In this document: one piece after another, positions 20,301 through 30,590 of the stretch
Numbering within the stretch: position 1 is the stretch's first letter
How the letters are laid out: every line of letters starts with the position of its first letter
The notes under the pieces: generated by a model
What the model was told of the DNA's origin: nothing
What the model saw: only the letters and a program-made list of their open reading frames with translations
Databases searched by the model: none
Assembly: GCF_000412185.1 (NCBI RefSeq)
Contig: NZ_ASJA01000008.1
Span: forward strand, 1 to 64,000
Reading direction: 5' to 3'
Origin: Euryhalocaulis caribicus
GTDB taxonomy: Bacteria; Pseudomonadota; Alphaproteobacteria; Caulobacterales; Maricaulaceae
Length of the DNA: 64,000 nucleotides
Position numbers and translations under genes: made by a program

Positions 20301-20325
20301 AACGAATGGATCGCGCGCCGGTTCC
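20301..20325 (-). promoter_or_regulatory. EcfG-type promoter for the OmpA lipoprotein gene
   Basis: Minus strand GGAAC (20325-20321), 16-base spacer, CGTT (20304-20301). This is a perfect match to the general stress sigma factor consensus and points at the gene starting at 20247. Confidence 0.8.
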
Positions 20326-20338
20326 TTGAACAAATCGA

Positions 20339-21037
20339 TCACCGGCAAAAGTCGTACGGACCCATGTCGAGATGAAAATGGTCCTCATGGGCCTTGTTAT
20401 AGTCCGGGCTGATGACGCCCTGGAAAAGATCGCATGACCCTTTTCTGATCTCGCGCAGGAATGCAGCGTCGTCATCTTCGCCGGTCCAGTCTGAACGCAG
20501 GCTGACTGTGCGCCCGTCCTCAAGGCGGAATTCGGCGACATCAATGGCGTTGGCGCTGGCGTGTTCGCTGATCGACCCGTTGGGACGGCCATAGACCCGG
20601 CGGCAGGCATAGGTCCCGTAATGTCCGATGCGGGAAACTTTCTGGCCGTATATTTCCTGCGCGGCCGCCTGAACCACGTCGCGCTCCCACAGGAAAAGCG
20701 TGGCGGCCAGCGGGCAGCGCGCGACCACGGCGGCGGAATAGGGCGTGATCGATTTCTCGATTTCGACGCCGTCGTCATAGCCGCAGAAATCGCCGCTTTC
20801 GACCGGGGGCAGGGGTGAAAATTCCATGCCGGCGTCTTCCAGAAGCGCGTAACAGGCGTCCGGGTTGCGGGAGAGGGCGTCCAGCTTCATTTCCGTAAAT
20901 GCGCCGACGGGATCGTTCAGATCCAGCTTGGTCCACGGCAGATCTTCATCCGGCAGCGTCACGACGAAGCCGACGGCGAGCACGAACCCGCAGGCAAGCG
21001 CCAGGAGCGCCACGGTTATTCTGACATATCGCATCAT
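20339..21037 (-). CDS. Extensin family protein
   Basis: A 232-residue protein with an N-terminal membrane anchor or signal (VRITVALLALACGFVLAVGF) and an extensin-like C-terminal domain: YGTYACRRVYGRPNGSISEH, ASANAIDVAEFRLEDG and AHEDHFHLDMGPYDFCR. The His/Asp arrangement resembles metal-dependent peptidoglycan peptidases of the M15 type. It probably sits in the periplasm. A second in-frame ATG follows the first. Confidence 0.87.
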   Translation of the reverse strand: MMRYVRITVALLALACGFVLAVGFVVTLPDEDLPWTKLDLNDPVGAFTEMKLDALSRNPDACYALLEDAGMEFSPLPPVESGDFCGYDDGVEIEKSITPYSAAVVARCPLAATLFLWERDVVQAAAQEIYGQKVSRIGHYGTYACRRVYGRPNGSISEHASANAIDVAEFRLEDGRTVSLRSDWTGEDDDAAFLREIRKGSCDLFQGVISPDYNKAHEDHFHLDMGPYDFCR

Positions 21038-21046
21038 GAAGGCAGG

Positions 21047-21071
21047 GGAACTCCTTTAGTATGCGCGCGTT
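21047..21071 (+). promoter_or_regulatory. EcfG-type promoter upstream of the lipid kinase gene
   Basis: GGAAC at 21047-21051, a 16-base spacer, and CGTT at 21068-21071: a perfect match. It would start a transcript near 21078 that reads into the diacylglycerol-kinase-like gene. Confidence 0.65.
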
Positions 21072-21178
21072 CCGGATTTCCGACCGCGCAGCCCGTTCAA
21101 GGCCGCCTGAAAAACCGGCCGGATACGCTATATAGGTAGCGACCCGCCTTGTTTTCGCCTCAGAAAGGAAAGACCGCC

Positions 21179-22108
21179 CTGACCCGATCAGAAACAGTGA
21201 CAGCCCCGGACGCGGGCAAGACGCAGTTTGCCGCCGTGGTGAACCGCGCGTCCGGCTATGTCGGCGAAAAAAGCCCCGCCCATGTTCAGGCGATGCTGGA
21301 AAACGCGGCCCATTCCCGGCTTTGCGATCTCAAATTTCTTGACCCGGACGATATTCTCGAAGGCCTGAAGGACGCGTTCGAAGGTCCGTGCGGGGGCGTC
21401 ATCGTTCTGGGCGGCGACGGTACGGCGCGCTGCGCCGCCGAATTTGCGATGAAGCACGACAAGCCCCTGATCCCGTTGCCGGGGGGCACGATGAACCTGC
21501 TTCCGCGCAAGCTGTACGGCGAACGCGGACCGGCGGACGCGTTGCGCGCCGCGCTGGGTGGCCAGCGCGCGCTGATCGACGCCGGGCAGGCGGATGACCG
21601 GCTGTTCTTCCTGTCCGCCGCTTTCGGTTTCGCGCCTGACATGACCCGCGCGCGAGAGGCGTTTCGCGGGCAGACGGGGCTGGACGCCTTGCCGCGCGTG
21701 CTGTCCTTCGCGCGCCGCGCCCTGGCGGACGCCTTTCATATGAATGTGTTGTTCGGCGTCGATGGTGAAGAACCCGGCCGGGAGGCCGAGCTTCTTGTCG
21801 TGGCGCTGGGCGGCCTGTCCCACCTGATGGAGTTGAAGGTGGATGAGGATGTCGGCCGCAAATTCGAATGTATCGCGTCCGACGTGCATGATCTGGGCGA
21901 GGCGGCGCGGCTGGGCTTCAACGCCCTGACCCAGCGTTGGCGGGAAGACCCGGGCGTTGCGATCGACTGCACCGAGCAGGTGCGCGTAAAACTGAAGGAA
22001 GAGGATCCCTATGGCGTTCTGGATGGCGAGCCGATGAAGCTGAAATGCGAATTCGACGTGCGCTATCTGAAGGACGCGATCCCGGTTCTGGCGCCGGCGG
22101 AAGCCTGA
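21179..22108 (+). CDS. Diacylglycerol kinase family lipid kinase
   Basis: A DagK catalytic-domain protein of about 310 residues. GGVIVLGGDGTARCAAEFAM holds the GGDGT nucleotide-binding motif; LIPLPGGTMNLLPRKLYG is the second conserved loop. The start is uncertain: the CTG at 21179 has AGGA nine bases upstream, a TTG at 21149 lacks a ribosome site, and a GTG at 21197 is also possible. It is followed within three bases by the metallophosphoesterase gene, so the two form an operon. Confidence 0.85.
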   Translation: MTRSETVTAPDAGKTQFAAVVNRASGYVGEKSPAHVQAMLENAAHSRLCDLKFLDPDDILEGLKDAFEGPCGGVIVLGGDGTARCAAEFAMKHDKPLIPLPGGTMNLLPRKLYGERGPADALRAALGGQRALIDAGQADDRLFFLSAAFGFAPDMTRAREAFRGQTGLDALPRVLSFARRALADAFHMNVLFGVDGEEPGREAELLVVALGGLSHLMELKVDEDVGRKFECIASDVHDLGEAARLGFNALTQRWREDPGVAIDCTEQVRVKLKEEDPYGVLDGEPMKLKCEFDVRYLKDAIPVLAPAEA

Positions 22109-22110
22109 TC

Positions 22111-22896
22111 ATGGCGACCATCGTACAGATATCTGACCTGCATTTCGGTTCTGAAGACCCGGCGCTTGTCGAGGCGTTGAGCGAGAGCATCGCCGAAATT
22201 TCACCGGACGCGGTGGCGGTATGCGGCGACCTGACCCAGAAGGGCAAGCGCCGCGAATTCCTGGCCGCGGCGGAGTTCCTGGCCGCCCTCGACGCGCCGG
22301 TGGTCATTGCCGAGGGCAATCACGACACGCCGTTCTGGAATATGTTTGCCCGCATGACCGCGCCATTCGCGCGCTTTCGCAAGCGGCTGGCGCGGGCGCG
22401 CACCGAAGCCTTCCTTGATGACCGGCTGGTCATGCACACGCTGAACACCGCGCGCGGCGTTCAGGCGCGTCCGGACTGGTCGCTGGGTTCGGTGCGGCTG
22501 CGCGAGGCGCAGGAGGTCATCGACCAGCTCAATCAGGGGCACAAGGACGCCGCCAAGGCGGTGGTCTGTCACCATCCCCTGATCACCCCGCGCAATGCGC
22601 CGTTTCCGGCCCGCACCCGGCGGGGCGAGGCGGCGGCCCGGATACTGGCGGAGGGCGGGGTCGACCTGGTCCTGACCGGCCACCTGCATGTGGAGTTCGC
22701 GGAGCGGTTTCCGTTTCATGACATGACCAGCTGGGCGGTTGGCGCGGGCACGGCGCTGTCCACCCGCACGCGCGGCGTTCCCGCCGGTTTCAACGCCATT
22801 CGCGTAACGCCCGAAGCCTTTGAGCTGACCGTCTATCATTCGGTCGGCGCGGCCTTCGAGGCGGTGCGTGACGAAAAATTGGCGCGGCGCCCCTAA
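22111..22896 (+). CDS. Metallophosphoesterase
   Basis: A 261-residue calcineurin-like phosphoesterase starting at ATG 22111. Metal-binding motifs in order are ISDLHFG (D-x-H), VCGDLTQKG (GD), IAEGNHDTPF (GNHD), VVCHHPLI and LTGHLHVEF (GH-x-H). It resembles CpdA-like phosphodiesterases, but the substrate (cyclic nucleotide or phospholipid) is not evident. Coupling to a lipid kinase gene hints at lipid phosphate metabolism; that is inference. Confidence 0.9.
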   Translation: MATIVQISDLHFGSEDPALVEALSESIAEISPDAVAVCGDLTQKGKRREFLAAAEFLAALDAPVVIAEGNHDTPFWNMFARMTAPFARFRKRLARARTEAFLDDRLVMHTLNTARGVQARPDWSLGSVRLREAQEVIDQLNQGHKDAAKAVVCHHPLITPRNAPFPARTRRGEAAARILAEGGVDLVLTGHLHVEFAERFPFHDMTSWAVGAGTALSTRTRGVPAGFNAIRVTPEAFELTVYHSVGAAFEAVRDEKLARRP

Positions 22897-22897
22897 A

Positions 22898-22922
22898 GGA
22901 ACACATTTCGTGATCCCGCGTT
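22898..22922 (+). promoter_or_regulatory. EcfG-type promoter for the PRC-barrel gene
   Basis: GGAAC at 22898-22902, a 16-base spacer, and CGTT at 22919-22922: a perfect match, 43 bases upstream of the start codon at 22965. Confidence 0.85.
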
Positions 22923-22964
22923 GATAGAGCGAGCATACAAGTCGCTAATTCGCTGGGGCACACA

Positions 22965-23657
22965 ATGAAATACAAGTATATAGCCTTGGCTGGCGCCGCC
23001 GCGCTGATAGCCGCCGGCGCGCCCGCTCACATCAACCAGACTTCTACTGACGCGATCGCCGATCATACCTTCGATTTCTCATCCGCGCGCTTTGCGCCGG
23101 CCGCACAGATTGAAGTTTCGCGGCTCCTGAGCGCCGACGTTACGTCCTCGGACAGTTTCGGCCATGGCCGGATTCATCATCTCAGCTTTGATGACCGCGG
23201 CACGCCCGAATGGGTCTGGCTGGAATTTGGCGACTATCTGAGCAACTGGACCGTGCGCGCGCCGGTTTCGGACCTTTATTACGACCGCCAGACGGGCGAG
23301 GTTATCACCCGTCCCGAGCTGTCAGACCTGAAAGAGCGCGCCCGGATGGACCGCGAGGCCAAGCCCGAAACGGCGACCCGCCTGTCCGCCGAATTCATGC
23401 CGCCCGCGCGTCTGATGGGCGTTCGCGTGCTGAATGCGCAAGGCGACGCCTATGGCCGGGTTCACAGCGTGGAAGTGGCGGAAGACGGCGCTGTGGAAAG
23501 CATCCGGATCGAGAGCGGATTTGGCCTGCTGGGACTGAAGCAGCACGTGGTGAGCGTTCCGGCGGACAAGATCAATTACCTGCCGATCATGGAAAAGGCC
23601 GTGATCGAAGGCCCGGCGGCGCCGCAATTTGCCGCCGCCATTCCTGACACGGCCTGA
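22965..23657 (+). CDS. Secreted PRC-barrel-like protein
   Basis: A 230-residue exported protein with a signal peptide (MKYKYIALAGAAALIAAGAP). Two PRC-barrel-like repeats follow: the first around LLSADVTSSDSFGHGRIHHL and the second around LMGVRVLNAQGDAYGRVHSV, each with a V-x-VPADK or V-x-APVSDL type ending. Such domains occur in stress proteins. A perfect EcfG promoter precedes it and a strong terminator follows it. The molecular role is unknown. Confidence 0.75.
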   Translation: MKYKYIALAGAAALIAAGAPAHINQTSTDAIADHTFDFSSARFAPAAQIEVSRLLSADVTSSDSFGHGRIHHLSFDDRGTPEWVWLEFGDYLSNWTVRAPVSDLYYDRQTGEVITRPELSDLKERARMDREAKPETATRLSAEFMPPARLMGVRVLNAQGDAYGRVHSVEVAEDGAVESIRIESGFGLLGLKQHVVSVPADKINYLPIMEKAVIEGPAAPQFAAAIPDTA

Positions 23658-23677
23658 TCGCCACTGCAGTCACGTAT

Positions 23678-23711
23678 AAAAAAGCCCGGGGCGTTTGCCC
23701 CGGGCTTTTTC
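23678..23711. terminator. Bidirectional terminator between PRC-barrel and entericidin genes
   Basis: Stem AAAGCCCGGGGC / GCCCCGGGCTTT with a 4-base loop, with A-run on the left and T-run on the right. It can end transcripts of both convergent genes. Confidence 0.9.
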
Positions 23712-23730
23712 ATGAGATTGAGCGGTGATC

Positions 23731-23871
23731 TTACTTGGAAGATTCCGCAGCATCCTCGACGGAGTCGCCAGCGGACTCGACGTCTTCGCCAGCGCCGGCG
23801 ATCGTGTTGCAAGCGGAAATGCCGGCGACCATCAGAAGCGCGGCAAAGGCGGTGATAAAGCGTTTATACAT
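23731..23871 (-). CDS. Entericidin A/B family lipoprotein
   Basis: A 46-residue small lipoprotein. AAAGGA precedes the ATG at 23871. The signal ends in the lipobox VAGISAC; after the Cys comes NTIAGAGEDVESAGDSVEDA, the hallmark of entericidins (A/B toxin-antidote lipoproteins). It is a single-copy gene here with no paired partner. It lies next to the EcfG locus, and entericidins in other bacteria are stationary-phase or stress genes. Confidence 0.9.
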   Translation of the reverse strand: MYKRFITAFAALLMVAGISACNTIAGAGEDVESAGDSVEDAAESSK

Positions 23872-23923
23872 CGGAGAGTCCTTTCGTTACTCGATGCGGC
23901 TTGGTGATACGGGCAGTAAATGC

Positions 23924-24583
23924 TCAGGCGGACTTTTTGTTCGCCGAAGTTCCAGATTTTTTTCCGCGCCGCGCCAAAGTATCGGCTTCTGAAAGAATGC
24001 TGCTCATCGCATCCGAGGCCCCGCTTGACTTCTCACCCTTGCGGGCCGCGCCGGAGCGGTCGTTCATCATCTCTTCCAGAGCTTTGCGCGCGCGATTCAC
24101 CCGGCTCTTGATCGTGCCGACGGCGCAGTCGCAAATCTCGGCCGCTTCCTCGTAGGCGAACCCGCCGGCGCCGACCAGAACCAGCGCCTCGCGCTGTTCT
24201 TCGGGCAGGTGGTTCATGGCGCGGCGCAGATCTTCAAGATCCAGAACCGTGTCCTGGCCGGCGGGGGAGGTGAGGGTGCGTTCGGCCTTTTCCTCGTCCC
24301 AGGCGGCCTGGCGCCAGGCGCGGCGTTTTTCGGAATAGAAGTGATTGCGCAGGATCATGAAGGTCCAGGCCTTCATGTTCGTGCCGGGCTCATAACTGGA
24401 CCGGGCGTTCCAGGCTTTGACCAGGGCTTCCTGCGCCAGATCGTCGGCCGCCTCGCGGTTGCCGGTCAGGCTTCGGCCGAAGGCCCGCAGATGCGGAATC
24501 TGCTGAACCAGCTCGTCCTTGAAGGCCGAGTCATCCATCGCGCCTTTCTCGGCGCGGGGTTTCTTGTCTGGTTTCTGACCCAT
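23924..24583 (-). CDS. ecfG: EcfG-type RNA polymerase sigma factor (general stress response)
   Basis: A 219-residue ECF sigma factor. Sigma2 is seen in HLRAFGRSLTGNREAADDLA and VKAWNARSSYEPGTNMKAW, and sigma4 in LPEEQREALVLVGAGGFAYE and GTIKSRVNRARKALEEMM. The start at 24583 lies one base after the nepR stop. The C-terminal tail of about 45 residues is basic and probably disordered. The arrangement with nepR upstream and phyR divergent identifies it as the alphaproteobacterial general stress sigma factor. Confidence 0.93.
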   Translation of the reverse strand: MGQKPDKKPRAEKGAMDDSAFKDELVQQIPHLRAFGRSLTGNREAADDLAQEALVKAWNARSSYEPGTNMKAWTFMILRNHFYSEKRRAWRQAAWDEEKAERTLTSPAGQDTVLDLEDLRRAMNHLPEEQREALVLVGAGGFAYEEAAEICDCAVGTIKSRVNRARKALEEMMNDRSGAARKGEKSSGASDAMSSILSEADTLARRGKKSGTSANKKSA

Positions 24584-24584
24584 T

Positions 24585-24788
24585 TTATGACTTGGACGCT
24601 GTTTTACGGTCGTCGATCTGTTCCAGGAGCGAGCGGAAGTCGTCCGGGACATCTTCATCGAGAACGTCATCATACATCTGACGCAAACGGCGGCCGATCC
24701 CGCGCTGGCGGGACCGGGCTTCATTCGCAGAGACGTCGTGGTGTTCCGTGTCCGGCCCTTTGTCAGGATCAGTCATCAAATCGGTCAT
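24585..24788 (-). CDS. nepR: NepR family anti-sigma factor
   Basis: A short helical protein (about 67 residues from ATG 24788; upstream ATGs at 24833 and 24881 are in frame). The diagnostic segment is GRRLRQMYDDVLDEDVPDDF followed by RSLLEQID, which contacts both EcfG and the sigma-like domain of PhyR. It is co-transcribed with ecfG with a one-base gap. A weak EcfG-type box (GGAAC-N16-CATT, minus strand, 24869 to 24845) upstream would allow autoregulation. Confidence 0.9.
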   Translation of the reverse strand: MTDLMTDPDKGPDTEHHDVSANEARSRQRGIGRRLRQMYDDVLDEDVPDDFRSLLEQIDDRKTASKS

Positions 24789-24844
24789 ATCGCTTTTGCT
24801 TGCGCCGCCATCGCCATGGCGAGCAGGGTTCATTCGGCGGTTAA

Positions 24845-24869
24845 AATGCGTGACTTGCCTAACAGTTCC
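24845..24869 (-). promoter_or_regulatory. Possible EcfG-type promoter of nepR-ecfG (imperfect -10)
   Basis: Minus-strand GGAAC (24869-24865), a 16-base spacer, then CATT instead of CGTT. Autoregulation of nepR-ecfG is known in relatives, which favours it despite the mismatch. Confidence 0.45.
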
Positions 24870-24990
24870 GTCGAGTTGCAATAAAAATTGAACTTATTGC
24901 ACCCTCGCGCATTGTGTGGTGCGACGATCATCGCGCGGCGCCGGCGACGGCGCGGCGCTTTCAAGCTTTTCTCAGGGGAGAATGCCAATC

Positions 24991-25782
24991 ATGAGCATGG
25001 CCGAAAGCCTCGGACCGCACCTGCCATATCTGCGCCGCTACGCCCGCGCGCTGACCGGATCTCAAAAGAGCGGGGACGCCTATGTGCGGGCCTCGCTGGA
25101 AGCGCTTGTCGAAGGCGATCAGTCGCTGGAACAGGACCTGCCACCCCGCGTGGCCCTGTACCGCCTGTTCCACGCCATCTGGATCAGCGCCAATGACGAC
25201 AGCCAGCCGACCCCGTCCGAACTGGAGGAATCCCCGGAAGACCGGCTGATGAGCCTTGCCCCGCGCAGCCGTCAGGCGCTGCTGCTGACCTCGATGGAGG
25301 GCTTCACCACGCGGGAGACCGCGCGGATCCTCGATGTCGAGGAAGCCGAGGTGGACCGCATGATCGCCAAGGCGCAGGCCGAGATCGAGGCCGAGCTGGC
25401 CACCAATGTCCTGATTATCGAGGACGAGCCGGTCATCGCCATGGACATTGAGGGTCTGGTCAGCGAACTGGGCCACAATATCACCGCCATTACCACGACG
25501 CGGGACGAGGCGGTTCAGGCCGCCAAGGACAACCCGCCGGGTCTGGTGCTGGCCGATATCCAGCTGGCGGACGGCTCCTCCGGCGTCGACGCCGTGAAAG
25601 CGATCCTGGGCGACATGGACGTGCCGGTGATCTTCATCACCGCTTATCCGGAACGCCTGCTGACGGGCGAGCGGCCGGAACCGGCTTTCCTGATCACCAA
25701 GCCGTTCCTGCCCCAGACGGTGAAAGCCGCCATTGGCCAGGCGCTGTTCTTCCATCCGCGCCGGCGCGACAAGGCCGCCTGA
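24991..25782 (+). CDS. phyR: General stress response regulator PhyR
   Basis: A 263-residue protein of N-terminal sigma-like domain and C-terminal receiver. The sigma-like part holds GPHLPYLRRYARALTGSQKS and APRSRQALLLTSMEGFTTRE; the receiver has NVLIIEDEPVIAMDIE, the phospho-acceptor Asp in GLVLADIQLADG, VIFITAYPE and LITKPF. Phosphorylated PhyR binds NepR and frees EcfG. ATG 24991 is ten bases after AGGGGAG; ATGs at 24982 and 24997 are alternatives. It is divergent from nepR-ecfG. Confidence 0.95.
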   Translation: MSMAESLGPHLPYLRRYARALTGSQKSGDAYVRASLEALVEGDQSLEQDLPPRVALYRLFHAIWISANDDSQPTPSELEESPEDRLMSLAPRSRQALLLTSMEGFTTRETARILDVEEAEVDRMIAKAQAEIEAELATNVLIIEDEPVIAMDIEGLVSELGHNITAITTTRDEAVQAAKDNPPGLVLADIQLADGSSGVDAVKAILGDMDVPVIFITAYPERLLTGERPEPAFLITKPFLPQTVKAAIGQALFFHPRRRDKAA

Positions 25783-25798
25783 TTTCTTTCCATTTCTT

Positions 25799-25824
25799 GG
25801 AACGGAAGCGCGCTTTCGCGGGTT
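25799..25824 (+). promoter_or_regulatory. Near-consensus EcfG-type promoter for the DUF883 operon
   Basis: GGAAC at 25799-25803, a 17-base spacer, then GGTT at 25821-25824. It lies 56 bases upstream of the DUF883 start. One mismatch to CGTT. Confidence 0.6.
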
Positions 25825-25879
25825 ATTCGCGTAAGCGCGCTTAACGGCGCGGATTTTTCACTCGAAGAGGTTTTTTTCA

Positions 25880-26164
25880 ATGGCAACGACCACCAAACAG
25901 ACCGACGACAAATACGCGCTGAAGGAAGATATCGACGCCCTGCGCGGCGATCTCAGCCAGCTGATGAAGGACGTGAAAACCTTGGCCGAGCATGAAAGCA
26001 AGGAAGTTTCAAAGAAGGTCGGCGCCTGGAGCGAGGCGGCGCAGGACGAAGTCGCCGCGCGCCGTCAGGATCTGGAAAGCCAGGTCCGGGAAAATCCGCT
26101 GGGCGCTCTGGCGACCGCAGCGGGCGTGGGCTTTCTGATGGCGCTCATTCTGGGTCGCAAGTGA
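25880..26164 (+). CDS. DUF883 (ElaB/YqjD-like) family protein
   Basis: A 94-residue protein: an amphipathic coiled-coil (LKEDIDALRGDLSQLMKDVK) followed by a C-terminal membrane helix with the ENPLGALATAAGVGFLMALIL signature of YqjD/ElaB proteins. In other bacteria these are inner-membrane, ribosome-binding stationary-phase proteins. AGAGG precedes the ATG. It overlaps the next gene by GTGA. Confidence 0.9.
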   Translation: MATTTKQTDDKYALKEDIDALRGDLSQLMKDVKTLAEHESKEVSKKVGAWSEAAQDEVAARRQDLESQVRENPLGALATAAGVGFLMALILGRK

Positions 26165-26535
26165 ACGCATTTATTCGCGTAGCGGCGGCCTATGTAATCG
26201 CCCTGATCTTTCTGGTTGGCGCGCTGGGATTTGCCGGCGCGTCCGCGACCATCTGGATCGGCGGCGAAATCGGTTATGGCTGGGCGTCCTTGATTGTCGC
26301 GGGCGGCTTTCTGGCCGCTTGCGGGATCGCGGCCGCCTATGCCGCCTGGATGCGGGACCACAAGCCCGCAAAGACCAATCCGGTGGGCGGCACCGCGCTG
26401 GCGCTGTTCGAAAAACATCCGTTCGGCGTCATCGCCGGGGCCGGTTTGCTGGCTTTCCTGATCGCGCGGCGTCCCTCGCTGCTGCTGCGCAGCGCCACGC
26501 TGGGCGCGACTTTGGCGCGATTGCTCAAGGATTAG
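26161..26535 (+). CDS. Small multi-pass membrane protein (YqjE/holin-like)
   Basis: A 124-residue protein with four hydrophobic segments (AAAYVIALIFLVGALGFAGA, ASLIVAGGFLAACGIAAAYA, and two shorter near the C-terminus around GVIAGAGLLAFLIA). It starts at GTG overlapping the DUF883 stop. The pairing with a YqjD-like gene mirrors yqjD-yqjE; database labels may call it phage holin-like. No lytic role is implied. Confidence 0.7.
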   Translation: MNAFIRVAAAYVIALIFLVGALGFAGASATIWIGGEIGYGWASLIVAGGFLAACGIAAAYAAWMRDHKPAKTNPVGGTALALFEKHPFGVIAGAGLLAFLIARRPSLLLRSATLGATLARLLKD

Positions 26536-26603
26536 ACTTTTACCGCTCTAGTCGCCATGTCTTTCATGGCCGTAACGCGACCGCTACGCCGCACCCTTTT
26601 TCT

Positions 26604-26628
26604 GGAACGCGGCGAAGCGGCCCGCGTT
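26604..26628 (+). promoter_or_regulatory. EcfG-type promoter for superoxide dismutase
   Basis: GGAAC at 26604-26608, a 16-base spacer, and CGTT at 26625-26628: a perfect match, 77 bases upstream of the sodB start. Confidence 0.85.
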
Positions 26629-26704
26629 ATGTCAGAGACCGCCGCGCAGCCCGCCCAAAACCGGTTCACGCGGCACGAATACGAACCGACGGAGATTATC
26701 TCTT

Positions 26705-27340
26705 ATGGCTTTTTCACTCCCGCCATTGCCCTTTGAAAAAACAGCGCTGGAGCCGGCGATTTCGGCCAACACGCTGAATTATCACTACGACAAGCATCAC
26801 AACGCCTACATCACCAAAACCAATGACGCGATCAGCGGCACGGGCCTGGAAGGCAAGCCGCTGGAAGAGGTCGTGCGGACCGCGCGCCAGGAAGGCAAGC
26901 AGGGGCTGATCAACAATGCCTCGCAGGCCTGGAACCACACCTTCTACTGGAATTCCCTGACCGGCGGCTCCCCGCAGCCCTCCGACGCGCTGAAGAGCGC
27001 GATCGATTCCGCGTTTGGCGGCATGGACGGCTTCAAGGAGAAGTTCAAATCAACCGGCGCGGGGCACTTTGCCTCTGGCTGGGTGTGGCTGGTCGCCAAT
27101 CGCGACGGCGGTCTGGAAATCCGCGACACCCATGATGAGGGCGCGATCCTGCCGCAGGACGACTCGGTGCTTCCGATGCTGCTCTGCGATGTCTGGGAAC
27201 ACGCCTATTATCTCGACCGCCAGAATGATCGCGGCGCGTATCTGGACGCCGTGGTCAACCAGCTTCTCAACTGGGATCTGGCCAACAGCCAGTTCGAAGC
27301 CGCGCGCACCGGCGGCGAAGGCTGGAAACACCCGGAATAG
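26705..27340 (+). CDS. sodB: Superoxide dismutase (Fe/Mn family)
   Basis: A 211-residue iron/manganese SOD. Metal ligands are visible in LNYHYDKHHNAYI, NNASQAWNHTFYW, and the late CDVWEHAYYLD (Asp and His). AGHFASGWVWLV is the family core. QAWNH and the Gly-rich loops favour the iron type. No signal peptide, so it is cytoplasmic. An EcfG promoter precedes it and a rho-independent terminator ends it. Confidence 0.96.
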   Translation: MAFSLPPLPFEKTALEPAISANTLNYHYDKHHNAYITKTNDAISGTGLEGKPLEEVVRTARQEGKQGLINNASQAWNHTFYWNSLTGGSPQPSDALKSAIDSAFGGMDGFKEKFKSTGAGHFASGWVWLVANRDGGLEIRDTHDEGAILPQDDSVLPMLLCDVWEHAYYLDRQNDRGAYLDAVVNQLLNWDLANSQFEAARTGGEGWKHPE

Positions 27341-27353
27341 AACCGGAATGAAG

Positions 27354-27390
27354 AAAGGGACGCGGCACGCCGCGTCCCTTTTTCTTTTTT
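27354..27390 (+). terminator. Rho-independent terminator after sodB
   Basis: Stem AAAGGGACGCG / CGCGTCCCTTT, loop of about six bases, then a long T-rich run (TTTCTTTTTT). Confidence 0.92.
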
Positions 27391-27405
27391 GGAAAGGAAA
27401 ACAAA

Positions 27406-27579
27406 ATGCTTGGTTGGGCTCTTCTGTTTCTCATTCTGGCGGTTGTCGCCGGTTATTTCGGCTTCTTCGCGGTCGCCGGCGCCGGTTTCATGATCGCCAA
27501 GATCCTCTTCTTTGTGTTCCTGATCCTTCTGGTGGTCAGCGGCATCGCCAGCGCGATCCGCGGGCGTCCGCCGGTCTAG
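27406..27579 (+). CDS. DUF1328 domain-containing small membrane protein
   Basis: A 57-residue protein with two membrane helices ([20 protein letters not shown] and [15 protein letters not shown]) and the conserved [13 protein letters not shown] turn, as in the YtjA/DUF1328 family. AAAGGA lies seven bases before the ATG. These proteins are common in stress regulons. Its stop overlaps that of the convergent gene. Confidence 0.9.
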
Positions 27580-27800
27580 CTTCCCTGACCCCCGGTCGGG
27601 TCAACCGGTTCCGGATCGGTCTCGATGCTGGACGGGGCTGGCTGGTTCTGCGGCTCGTCGGCATCGCCGCCGGCCCAGATCGAATACAGCCCCCACAGCG
27701 CGGCTGAGGCCAGCAGGGTGGAGACCACCAGGATAATGAAAATGTGGTCGCCTCTATGGCCTTGCCGGGCCGGCTGAGGGTCTTTTTCGAGATGGGGCAT
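27576..27800 (-). CDS. Small single-TM hypothetical protein
   Basis: A 74-residue protein with a charged N-terminus ([18 protein letters not shown]), one membrane helix ([20 protein letters not shown]) and a Pro/Asp-rich tail. It is probably an inner-membrane protein with the tail outside. A perfect EcfG promoter on the minus strand lies 71 bases upstream, inside the opposing small ORF. Unknown function. Confidence 0.6.
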
Positions 27801-27867
27801 GAAATCCTCGCTTCAGGCAGCTTGAATAAAAACAGCGATATAGCGCCAAAATGAAAGGCGACGACCG

Positions 27868-28056
27868 ATGAACGAAGACAACAAAGATTCTGTTCCGGGA
27901 AGGCCCGCCGGGCCGCGGACATTCCGCCTGATCGGCCTTGTCGTGCTGGCTGCGATGATCATCGTTCTTGGTATTTTTTACGGCACCGCCCCCCGCGAAG
28001 CGCCGCCGCAACAGGACGGGTCCGATACGCCGGCTGCAGAAACTTCGGAACCGTGA
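27868..28056 (+). CDS. Small single-TM hypothetical protein
   Basis: A 62-residue protein with one membrane helix (LIGLVVLAAMIIVLGIFYG) between a basic N-terminus and an acidic Pro-rich tail, like the divergent protein at 27576-27800. The 5' end of the frame carries the minus-strand EcfG promoter of that neighbour. No promoter of its own is obvious. Unknown function. Confidence 0.55.
   Translation: MNEDNKDSVPGRPAGPRTFRLIGLVVLAAMIIVLGIFYGTAPREAPPQQDGSDTPAAETSEP
27871..27896 (-). promoter_or_regulatory. EcfG-type promoter for the 27576-27800 gene
   Basis: Minus strand GGAAC (27896-27892), a 17-base spacer, CGTT (27874-27871). It lies within the first codons of the divergent ORF. Confidence 0.75.
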
Positions 28057-28066
28057 TATTTTTTCA

Positions 28067-28091
28067 GGAACCAAACCTGACAACCGGCGTT
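28067..28091 (+). promoter_or_regulatory. EcfG-type promoter of the putative small RNA
   Basis: GGAAC at 28067-28071, a 16-base spacer, and CGTT at 28088-28091: a perfect match with no protein gene downstream on this strand before a terminator. Confidence 0.85.
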
Positions 28092-28097
28092 TTGTAG

Positions 28098-28213
28098 TTG
28101 TGATTGCACGCAGGGCGGACCGTCGTCCCTCCCCCTACCCCTGTCGGTTCGTCCACAGGCGTGCAATTACTGGCAAACAGATCGGCCGCCGCGCTCCCCC
28201 GCGGCGGCCTTTC
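28098..28213 (+). ncRNA. Putative general-stress small RNA, GsrN-like
   Basis: About 116 bases from the expected start of an EcfG promoter to a strong terminator, with no usable ORF. The 5' part folds into a stem: ATTGCACGC (28103-28111) pairs with GCGTGCAAT (28159-28167). Inside it GGACCG (28117-28122) pairs with CGGTTC (28145-28150). The 22-base apical loop is C-rich (28123-28144, with CCCTCCCCCTACCCC). A sigma-dependent RNA with a C-rich 5' loop and terminator is the architecture of Caulobacter GsrN. Assignment to that family is inference from structure. Confidence 0.72.
28184..28213 (+). terminator. Rho-independent terminator of the small RNA
   Basis: A perfect 10-bp stem GGCCGCCGCG / CGCGGCGGCC with loop CTCCCC, then TTTC. 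It ends six bases before the convergent mscS-like stop codon. Confidence 0.88.
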
Positions 28214-28218
28214 ACTGT

Positions 28219-29163
28219 CTAGCCCTCTTCGATCTTTCTCAGATTGTCCGGCGTATCCAGCGCCATGGGTTCGCGCTGCGACAGCGTGACCTGCGGGAAG
28301 GGGATTCCGATATCGGCCGCATCCAGTTCGCGCTTCACCGCAAACGCCACCTCGTCGAAGGAGGCGCGCTGATCCTTGTTGGACGATCCGGCCCACCACA
28401 GCAGCTTGAAGTCGATGGAAGAGCCGCCAAAGGCGATGCATTTCACTTCCGTGCCTTCGCTTTTCGAAATGCTCTCGCAGCTCTCCAGCGCCTTGTTCAG
28501 GGCGTCGGCGGCGGCGGGCAGGGAGGCGTCGTAATCCACGCCCACCACCAGTTCTGCGCGCCGGGTCTTGCGGTCGGTGCGCACCCAGACGGGATTAGTG
28601 AACAGCATGGCGTTGGGAACGATGACCAGCTGCCCGTCCGGCTGGCGGATATGGGTCTCCCGAATCGTGACCGATTCAACCTTGCCCAGGACATCCTCGC
28701 ACTCGATGAAATCGCCGATCCGCATTTCCTTGCGGAACAGGATCAGGATACCGGCCAGGAAATTCTCGAACACGTCCTTGAACGCAAACCCGACCGCCAG
28801 AGAGCCAAGACCCAGCGCGGCGACCATCTGGCCCGGCGTAACGCTGGGGAAGACGATGACGATGGCGATGGCGATGCCCGCCACCCAGACAAAAATGCCC
28901 GTCAAATTTTTGAACAGGGTGACCAGCGCGGGCCGCAGCCGGGCTTTTTCCAGTCCCGCCCCGGCCGCGCGCCCGATCAGACCCGACACGATGGCGGTTA
29001 TGATGAGGACCAGGATCGCCAGTCCGATCTGGGGCAGGCGTTCGATGAAACCGGCCGCCATGCCGGTCAGCGTGTCGGTCAGCAATTGTACGGGATCCAG
29101 TCCGCCGCTTAGTTCCGCGCCGCGTTCAGCCGCGCTCTCCGCCGCCGTATCATCCTGAATCAT
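28219..29163 (-). CDS. Mechanosensitive ion channel family protein (MscS type)
   Basis: A 314-residue small-conductance channel. Three membrane segments occur: IGLAILVLIITAIVSGLIG, LTGIFVWVAGIAIAIVIVF, and the pore helix AALGLGSLAVGFAFKDVFEN with its Gly/Ala face. The beta domain GDFIECEDVLGKVESVTIRE and VIVPNAMLFTNPV follow, as in MscS. It releases solutes on hypo-osmotic shock. The end converges on the small RNA gene. Confidence 0.93.
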   Translation of the reverse strand: MIQDDTAAESAAERGAELSGGLDPVQLLTDTLTGMAAGFIERLPQIGLAILVLIITAIVSGLIGRAAGAGLEKARLRPALVTLFKNLTGIFVWVAGIAIAIVIVFPSVTPGQMVAALGLGSLAVGFAFKDVFENFLAGILILFRKEMRIGDFIECEDVLGKVESVTIRETHIRQPDGQLVIVPNAMLFTNPVWVRTDRKTRRAELVVGVDYDASLPAAADALNKALESCESISKSEGTEVKCIAFGGSSIDFKLLWWAGSSNKDQRASFDEVAFAVKRELDAADIGIPFPQVTLSQREPMALDTPDNLRKIEEG

Positions 29164-29267
29164 TTGATTTTCCCGTTATCTGCTTTTGTCCATGAAAGCG
29201 GCCGCGGGCGCCGCCCGCAAGTTACGCCCTCTTTCCAGCGGGCGCGGCCCGCGGTTAGAACAGAATC

Positions 29268-29717
29268 ATGCCTGCGCTCCTGAATGTTCTCGAACTGATC
29301 TATCTCGTCTCCGCCGCATTTCTAGCCGGGGGCGGCGGAATCCTGTTGTTCCTGACATTGGCCTCGGACCGGTCGCCCGATCCCTGGCTCGCCGCCAAGC
29401 CGATGTTCTCGGCCGCGCGCTGGGTCTGGACGCCCATGGCGTTGATCGCGGTGATCAGCGGCGGCGTGCTGGCCTATTATGCGCCGCAGACCGCATCAAA
29501 GCTGTGGGTCGTGCTGGGCGAGCTGGCCTGGATTCTGGGCGCCGCGGCGCTGGGGACCGGGTTCCATCTGGCCATACGCGCCGCGCGGGAAGGGCGTCCG
29601 CCCGCATCCATCATCGCGGGCCGGCGGCATCGCGCCCGGCGCAACTGGATGTTCTGGATTGGCGGCGCGCTGACCGCCTTCGCCTATGGCGTCATGGCGA
29701 TCCGCCTGACCTTTTAG
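29268..29717 (+). CDS. Four-helix membrane protein, DUF2269-like
   Basis: A 149-residue protein with four hydrophobic helices (LNVLELIYLVSAAFLAGGGG, VWTPMALIAVISGGVLAYYA, VVLGELAWILGAAALGTGFH and the C-terminal WMFWIGGALTAFAYGVMAI). The pattern resembles DUF2269 integral membrane proteins. Function unknown. A terminator follows. Confidence 0.7.
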   Translation: MPALLNVLELIYLVSAAFLAGGGGILLFLTLASDRSPDPWLAAKPMFSAARWVWTPMALIAVISGGVLAYYAPQTASKLWVVLGELAWILGAAALGTGFHLAIRAAREGRPPASIIAGRRHRARRNWMFWIGGALTAFAYGVMAIRLTF

Positions 29718-29728
29718 CGCCGGATATG

Positions 29729-29760
29729 AAAAAGGGCGGCCCGGATGGACCGCCCTTTGA
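29729..29760. terminator. Terminator between DUF2269-like and sodC genes
   Basis: Stem AAAGGGCGG / CCGCCCTTT with a 10-base loop and flanking A and T residues. It can serve both convergent genes. Confidence 0.75.
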
Positions 29761-29788
29761 CAAGGCATAATCGGCGACAAAACCGCGC

Positions 29789-30511
29789 TTATTGCGCGTC
29801 AGTTTCCGCCGCGCCGGTGCGCACCGGCTTGCCGCGGATATTCACTGCCCCGTCGATGCCCTCAATGACGCCGCACGCGATTCGCGCGCCGGCACCGCCA
29901 ATGGGCTGAGTCATGTGATCGTCGGGCGCTTCGTGAATGACCACGGCGGAGCCGTCCGCATCCAGCAGCTTGGGCCGCTTGCCCATGTCGCCCTGTAACA
30001 GGACGCGCGTATTCAGCGTCTGGTCGGCCGTGCCGTCCGGGGCGACCATCAGATTGTGCAGGTCGCCGGCTTCCGGGCCCTCCGGGTTATCCATCCCGTG
30101 CTGGGCGGACTCCTTGCCGATATGACCGCCCGCGCTGGTGAAGTCAGCGGCGGAGCAATCGCCGGTTTCGTGCAGATGAATGCCGTGTTCGCCAGCGGGC
30201 AGACCGGCGGCGACCACGCGCATGGTCAGGCGGCGGTCATCCCAGAAAAACTCGGCCTGGCCGGATGCGTCCGGCAGATCGCCGATGAACTGCAAATCCG
30301 CGCGCGCCACGGCCATGTCGCCCGCCAGCGCGGCTTCCTTGTTCGAGGCCCCACTGGACCCCGCGTCACTGCCGCCCGGCGTGACGCCTTGTTCCTGTTG
30401 CCCGTCGGAGGCGTTTAGGTCCCCGTCGGACGTGTTGTCCTGCTGGTCCTGGCAGGCGGTAAGGGCGATTGCCGCGATGCCAGCTGAAAGAAGAAGAATT
30501 GAACGGCGCAT
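29789..30511 (-). CDS. sodC: Cu/Zn superoxide dismutase family lipoprotein
   Basis: The ATG at 30511 is preceded by CAGGAG and opens a lipoprotein signal ending in ALTAC. After a low-complexity linker rich in Asp, Ser and Gly, the SOD domain has GEHGIHLHETGDC (copper His pair and disulfide Cys), AGGHIGK, the zinc-loop DLHNLMVAPDG, VVIHEAPDDHMTQPIGGAG and RIACGVIE. About 240 residues, likely envelope-anchored. A perfect EcfG promoter (N17) precedes it. Confidence 0.93.
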   Translation of the reverse strand: MRRSILLLSAGIAAIALTACQDQQDNTSDGDLNASDGQQEQGVTPGGSDAGSSGASNKEAALAGDMAVARADLQFIGDLPDASGQAEFFWDDRRLTMRVVAAGLPAGEHGIHLHETGDCSAADFTSAGGHIGKESAQHGMDNPEGPEAGDLHNLMVAPDGTADQTLNTRVLLQGDMGKRPKLLDADGSAVVIHEAPDDHMTQPIGGAGARIACGVIEGIDGAVNIRGKPVRTGAAETDAQ

Positions 30512-30564
30512 ATGAACTCCTGAAGTCCTGTGTTGAGCGGCCACAAAGCTTTGCGACCCCCTAT

Positions 30565-30590
30565 AACGGATGCTACCTTGCCGATGTTCC
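30565..30590 (-). promoter_or_regulatory. EcfG-type promoter for sodC
   Basis: Minus strand GGAAC (30590-30586), a 17-base spacer, CGTT (30568-30565), 54 bases upstream of the sodC start. Confidence 0.85.

What the first reader, a model, noticed from the sequence alone, without database searches (positions are those of the whole stretch)
28067..28213. Stress-sigma-driven structured small RNA resembling GsrN
A perfect EcfG promoter (GGAAC-N16-CGTT) reads into about 116 bases with no ORF that end in a strong rho-independent terminator. The RNA would fold into a 5' stem-loop (9-bp stem 28103-28111/28159-28167, inner 6-bp stem 28117-28122/28145-28150) exposing a 22-base C-rich loop. In Caulobacter the general stress RNA GsrN has this design: EcfG-dependent, with a C-rich 5' loop pairing with G-rich leaders. 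The phyR ribosome site AGGGGAG and the M48 leader AAGGGG are G-rich strings that such a loop could meet.
Basis: partly seen in the sequence, partly recalled or inferred. Interest (0 to 1): 0.85.

Follow-up and report, generated by a model that had tools for sequence, protein, structure and literature searches.

The report
Stress-sigma-driven small RNA, GsrN-like
Next to the general-stress regulators of this bacterium lies a small RNA gene, apparently switched on by the stress sigma factor, whose RNA holds out a C-rich loop on a long stem; it looks and probably works like the Caulobacter stress RNA GsrN, but the standard models of that RNA family do not recognise it.

Summary
A perfect EcfG promoter (GGAAC-N16-CGTT, 28067-28091) precedes about 116 nt that fold far better than shuffles (z -6.0) into a long 5' stem with a 22-nt C-rich loop, then a terminator hairpin. 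The same-genus genome G001 has the same element at the same place: promoter boxes kept while the spacer diverged (3/16 identical), loop nearly identical, inner stem rewritten with all 12 pairs kept and 4 compensatory changes. By comparative evidence it is a real, selected non-coding RNA.
It is not a detectable member of the GsrN family. A covariance model from 21 Caulobacteraceae GsrN RNAs finds held-out GsrNs at 66-89 bits but gives this locus 2.6 bits, and Rfam RF01529, which fits a Caulobacter GsrN at 88 bits, does not hit it. Its C-rich stretch is apical, not beside a second hairpin.
EcfG-driven C-loop hairpins recur at general-stress loci in several lineages with unrelated stems (58/323 C-loop versus 8/568 G-loop hairpins), including a covariation-supported two-loop RNA in Sphingomonas, absent from Rfam.
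Best reading: a GsrN-like stress riboregulator, a new variant of a known kind. The suggested phyR target is not supported beyond chance, and no conserved target was found.

The parts
28067..28091 (+). EcfG-type promoter, GGAAC-N16-CGTT
   Evidence: sequence; boxes and spacing kept in G001 while the 16-nt spacer is 3/16 identical
28098..28213 (+). predicted small RNA; 5' end inferred from promoter spacing, 3' end from the terminator
   Evidence: MFE -59.4, z -6.0; same element in G001, z -5.5
28100..28170 (+). outer stem 28100-28111/28159-28170 (12 bp)
   Evidence: fold; an outer stem of different sequence (4+4 bp) in G001
28113..28154 (+). inner stem 28113-28122/28145-28154 plus 28124-28125/28142-28143
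   Evidence: 12 of 12 pairs form in both species, 4 with changes on both sides; slid controls pair 38-50% of cells
28123..28144 (+). 22-nt C-rich loop, putative seed UCGUCCCUCCCCCUACCCCUGU
   Evidence: nearly invariant between the two species while the stems diverge
28184..28212 (+). terminator-like hairpin (28184-28193/28200-28209) with loop CUCCCC and short U-tract
   Evidence: fold; similar hairpin followed by UUUC in G001
24916..25782 (+). phyR (longest ORF; probable start 24979 or 24964)
   Evidence: Pfam PhyR_sigma2, PhyR_sigma-like, Response_reg
24585..24881 (-). nepR (longest ORF)
   Evidence: Pfam NepR
23924..24724 (-). ecfG-type sigma factor (longest ORF; true start probably further in)
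   Evidence: Pfam Sigma70_r2, Sigma70_r4_2; next to nepR and phyR

Best explanation
The locus encodes a trans-acting small RNA of the general stress response. When PhyR sequesters NepR, EcfG is freed and transcribes the RNA from the promoter at 28067-28091. The roughly 116-nt RNA folds into a long 5' stem that presents a single-stranded C-rich loop, and ends in a terminator hairpin. The loop pairs with G-rich stretches of mRNAs, most easily at G-rich ribosome-binding sites, and changes their translation or stability, as GsrN does in Caulobacter. Shown here: promoter motif, fold, conservation and covariation in a second species, position at the GSR locus. Inferred: EcfG dependence, transcript ends, base-pairing function. 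Targets and the sign of regulation are unknown.
For: Promoter and fold. Same element, strand and distance from phyR in G001, with promoter boxes and loop kept and stem covarying. EcfG motif clustered in this window. Unique in the own genome. EcfG-driven C-loop hairpins recur at GSR loci: 58/323 v 8/568 G-loop hairpins. The window-type model's best non-self hits in 633 kb, weak ones of 19-24 bits, are the EcfG-driven RNAs of Sphingomonas, Oceanicaulis and Phenylobacterium. GsrN precedent with demonstrated C-loop pairing (PMC5869019).
Against: No transcript data. Only two species carry the detectable type, so covariation rests on one comparison (19 of 500 shuffles reach it). Most GSR loci of the same family show no similar RNA near phyR. 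No target stands out. U-tract is short.
Confidence: 0.72

Rival explanations
1. A diverged true orthologue of GsrN: the same ancestral gene at the GSR locus, with stems replaced and the C-rich strand moved into an apical loop.
For: Same promoter type, same side of phyR and similar distance as in Caulobacteraceae; sister family in the same order; no canonical GsrN found in 137 genomes of this family, as if replaced.
Against: GsrN model gives 2.6 bits; RF01529 does not appear even at E 10; different architecture; position and strand vary in other lineages.
Confidence: 0.3
2. A member or offshoot of the alpha-r14 / cuckoo RNA family, whose hairpins expose an anti-Shine-Dalgarno loop on variable stems.
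For: ar14 is among the top sub-threshold Rfam matches in both species (20.4 and 22.9 bits); C-rich loops in both hairpins; that family also keeps loops and varies stems (PMC10746234).
Against: Far below the gathering score 58.8; the defining CCUCCUCCC is absent (the loop has CCCUCCCCC); the promoter is EcfG-type, whereas the member NfeR1 has a sigma-70 signature.
Confidence: 0.08
3. Not a separate gene: the 3' untranslated region and terminator of the small membrane-protein gene ending at 28057, with a chance promoter motif.
For: That ORF is on the same strand and ends 9 nt before the -35 box; the motif is at chance level genome-wide.
Against: Both promoter boxes and their spacing are kept in G001 although the spacer is 3/16 identical; EcfG motifs are concentrated here.
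Confidence: 0.12
4. A shared bidirectional terminator or an antisense RNA acting on the convergent MscS gene.
For: The hairpin ends 6 nt before the MscS stop codon.
Against: MscS is not the neighbour in G001, yet the RNA is kept; the RNA does not overlap the MscS coding region.
Confidence: 0.03

Closest known systems
GsrN of Caulobacter (PMC5869019); identified with Rfam RF01529 CC3552 by the match of a Caulobacter GSR-locus RNA, an inference
   Same: EcfG-type promoter, about 100 nt, exposed C-rich 5' loop, terminator, close to the GSR locus in most Caulobacteraceae
   Different: No sequence or covariance-model match; C-rich stretch is apical on one long stem, not an unpaired strand beside a second small hairpin; no CCCCGACUUGA segment; katG leader of G000 is not G-rich
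Putative GsrN homologues of Rhizobiaceae (PMC5869019)
   Same: EcfG site, proximity to the GSR locus, exposed C-rich loop; found by position and expression, not by sequence
   Different: Sequences not compared here
PmaR of Agrobacterium (PMC6234868)
   Same: Spoon-like shape: one long stem with a C-rich single-stranded loop
   Different: Restricted to Agrobacterium and close kin; no EcfG link in the paper; not at a GSR locus as far as the paper says
alpha-r14 / cuckoo RNAs, e.g. NfeR1 (PMC10746234; Rfam RF02344)
   Same: Hairpins with conserved anti-Shine-Dalgarno-like C-rich loops on variable stems
   Different: Motif CCUCCUCCC absent; scores far below threshold; sigma-70 promoter in NfeR1

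Membership tests
GsrN (RF01529) | EcfG-type promoter upstream | tested here: met
GsrN (RF01529) | Proximity to ecfG-nepR-phyR (usual in Caulobacteraceae) | tested here: met
   2.3 kb downstream of phyR in G000 and G001
GsrN (RF01529) | Exposed C-rich 5' loop | tested here: met
   conserved in G001
GsrN (RF01529) | Sequence/structure match to the family model | tested here: not met
   2.6 bits with own GsrN model v 66-89 for held-out GsrN; no RF01529 match up to E 10
GsrN (RF01529) | C-rich strand followed by a small hairpin inside the closing stem | tested here: not met
   single hairpin with apical C loop v GsrN folds
GsrN (RF01529) | Pairing with G-rich targets, katG in particular | tested here: inconclusive
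   katG leader not G-rich; no target excess over control
GsrN (RF01529) | Expression dependent on EcfG; processing; Hfq dependence | not testable with these tools
   needs RNA experiments
alpha-r14 / cuckoo RNA (RF02344) | CCUCCUCCC in the loops | tested here: not met
   loop reads UCCCUCCCCCUACCCC
alpha-r14 / cuckoo RNA (RF02344) | Model score over the gathering threshold | tested here: not met
   20.4 v 58.8 bits

The most novel reading that the evidence does not exclude
Alphaproteobacteria repeatedly and independently place a C-loop (anti-Shine-Dalgarno-like) hairpin RNA under the general-stress sigma factor at or near its own regulatory locus: unrelated stems, same loop chemistry, same promoter. 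GsrN would then be one of several non-homologous solutions, together with the window RNA, the Oceanicaulis RNA and a two-loop Sphingomonas RNA.
Probability: 0.35. Interest if true: 0.65.

Novelty: new variant of a known kind. Interest (0 to 1): 0.47.

Why it matters
It extends stress-sigma-driven C-loop riboregulators beyond the Caulobacteraceae and Rhizobiaceae for which they were proposed. It suggests that sequence and covariance searches miss them because little but the loop is held fixed, and gives a search recipe (EcfG promoter, hairpin with C-rich loop, GSR neighbourhood). It makes testable whether the post-transcriptional arm of the general stress response is as widespread in Alphaproteobacteria as the PhyR-NepR-EcfG switch.

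Tried and rejected
BLAST of the DNA in 40 relatives: only two short partial hits besides itself. GsrN model over 137 genomes of the family: nothing. Window-type model over 398 genomes of the order: only G000 and G001. Promoter-plus-C-run patterns over the family and the class: no clear excess over the reversed control, so the motif alone proves nothing away from the GSR locus. Targets: window-wide duplex scan no better than the reversed loop; phyR leader -13.3 kcal/mol in the window and -21.5 in G001, not exceptional against the many sites beyond -20; katG leaders of G000 and G001 without a matching G-run; uppS, attractive because its mRNA co-purified with GsrN (PMC5869019), has a perfect match only in G000 and not in G001. 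Peptide-coding reading rejected: overlapping ORFs seen in the two species are unrelated and the loop has a 1-nt length change. A first pair count used a structure mis-registered by two columns and was redone. An alignment with G013 used the wrong strand and was dropped.

Full report
What is there. Bases 28067-28091 read GGAACCAAACCTGACAACCGGCGTT, a perfect EcfG promoter with a 16-base spacer. The 116 bases from 28098 fold at -59.4 kcal/mol, 6 standard deviations below dinucleotide shuffles. The fold is a 12-bp outer stem, a 10+2-bp inner stem, a 22-nt C-rich loop (UCGUCCCUCCCCCUACCCCUGU), a short linker and a GC-rich hairpin with a short U-tract. No Rfam family reaches its threshold at this place.

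Neighbourhood. Pfam identifies nepR, the ecfG-type sigma factor and phyR at 23924-25782, then a DUF883-like protein, an unassigned ORF, Fe/Mn superoxide dismutase, a DUF1328 protein, and the convergent MscS-type gene. The strict EcfG motif is at chance level in the whole genome (52 v 52 in the control). It is concentrated here, nine copies in 64 kb (p about 3e-7), most of them just upstream of plausible stress genes such as both superoxide dismutases.

Conservation. Only one other genome of the genus was found (G001; phyR protein 73% identical). It has the same order phyR - DUF883-like - SOD - [element], a similar distance and the same strand. MscS is not the neighbour there, so the element belongs with the stress locus. 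The -35 and -10 boxes and their spacing are kept while the spacer is 3/16 identical. The loop is almost unchanged. In the inner stem all 12 pairs form in both species, four of them after changes on both sides; slid controls pair 38-50% of cells, and 19 of 500 shuffles reach the observed value. The G001 RNA folds with z -5.5. This is the pattern of a selected RNA whose loop is the working part, though it rests on two species.

Is it GsrN? GSR loci of Caulobacter, Phenylobacterium and Brevundimonas carry an EcfG-driven RNA GCGGAGGCGGCGACGCCCCCCCGACUUGAG.... Its loop complements the UCAAGUCGGGG sites listed for GsrN partners (PMC5869019), and a Caulobacter copy matches Rfam RF01529 at 88 bits. 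A model built from 21 of them finds held-out copies at 66-89 bits but gives the window RNA 2.6 bits, and finds none in 137 genomes of the window's family (that search has no positive control among those genomes). So the window RNA is not a recognisable GsrN; it shares the design, not the sequence. The window's family is in the same order as Caulobacteraceae and the Henriciella-containing family; one member (G042) is identical over 19 kb to a record named 'Hyphomonadaceae bacterium SS_bin_111'.

A wider pattern. In GSR loci of many Alphaproteobacteria, hairpins with C-rich loops have an EcfG-type promoter upstream in 58 of 323 cases, against 8 of 568 for hairpins with G-rich loops in the same DNA. 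Many of the 58 are homologous copies within Sphingomonas, so the p-value is not to be read literally, but the sequence types are several: GsrN, the window type, G013, G010, Oceanicaulis and Sphingomonas. In Sphingomonas, 26 aligned copies give an RNA with a C-rich loop in the 5' hairpin and a second in the terminator hairpin, with compensatory changes in 12 of 26 pairs, and no Rfam match. The GsrN paper reported no such gene for its outgroup Erythrobacter litoralis. The distribution is patchy: most GSR loci of the window's own family show nothing similar near phyR, although two genomes (G015, G045) have a similar RNA elsewhere. Away from the GSR locus, pattern searches show no clear excess over controls.

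How it probably works. By analogy with GsrN and the spoon-shaped PmaR, the loop should pair with G-rich mRNA segments. Its core is complementary to GGGGGAGGGAC, a string that in several genes of G000 and G001 sits immediately before a start codon, so occlusion of strong ribosome-binding sites is the simplest action; G-rich strings are expected there anyway. No target could be shown: phyR, katG and uppS were examined and none is convincing or conserved.

Verdict. By comparative evidence a real EcfG-type, GsrN-like sRNA gene; a new variant of a known kind; transcription, EcfG dependence and targets remain to be tested.

Noticed in passing
L119-L165 (26 Sphingomonas and related GSR loci), e.g. 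L122:7802-7900 (-): EcfG-driven RNA about 2 kb from phyR with C-rich loops in both the 5' hairpin and the terminator hairpin; 12 of 26 pairs show compensatory changes; no Rfam match.
   Followed up: partly
window 20301-30590: Cluster of EcfG promoter motifs facing starts of SOD, Cu/Zn SOD and other ORFs; nine in the window against about 0.84 expected.
   Followed up: partly
L171 (G015:C1:2041628) and L172 (G045:C60:342011): Two genomes of another genus share an EcfG-driven long hairpin with loop GTACCCTCCCCC; in G015 it is far from phyR.
   Followed up: partly
L127:12063 (-), L132:12115 (-), L061:7396 (+): Oceanicaulis and G010 carry EcfG-driven RNAs beside phyR with a 5' hairpin followed by a C-loop hairpin and a terminator.
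   Followed up: partly
G000:C7:87445-87455 (L193): The uppS start region holds a perfect 11-nt complement of the loop; uppS mRNA co-purified with GsrN in Caulobacter; the match is not present at uppS of G001.
   Followed up: yes
L115:7693 (-): Parvibaculum GSR locus: EcfG-type promoter before a 14-bp hairpin with loop ATTTCCCCGCCCCCCAAGCCCCA.
   Followed up: no
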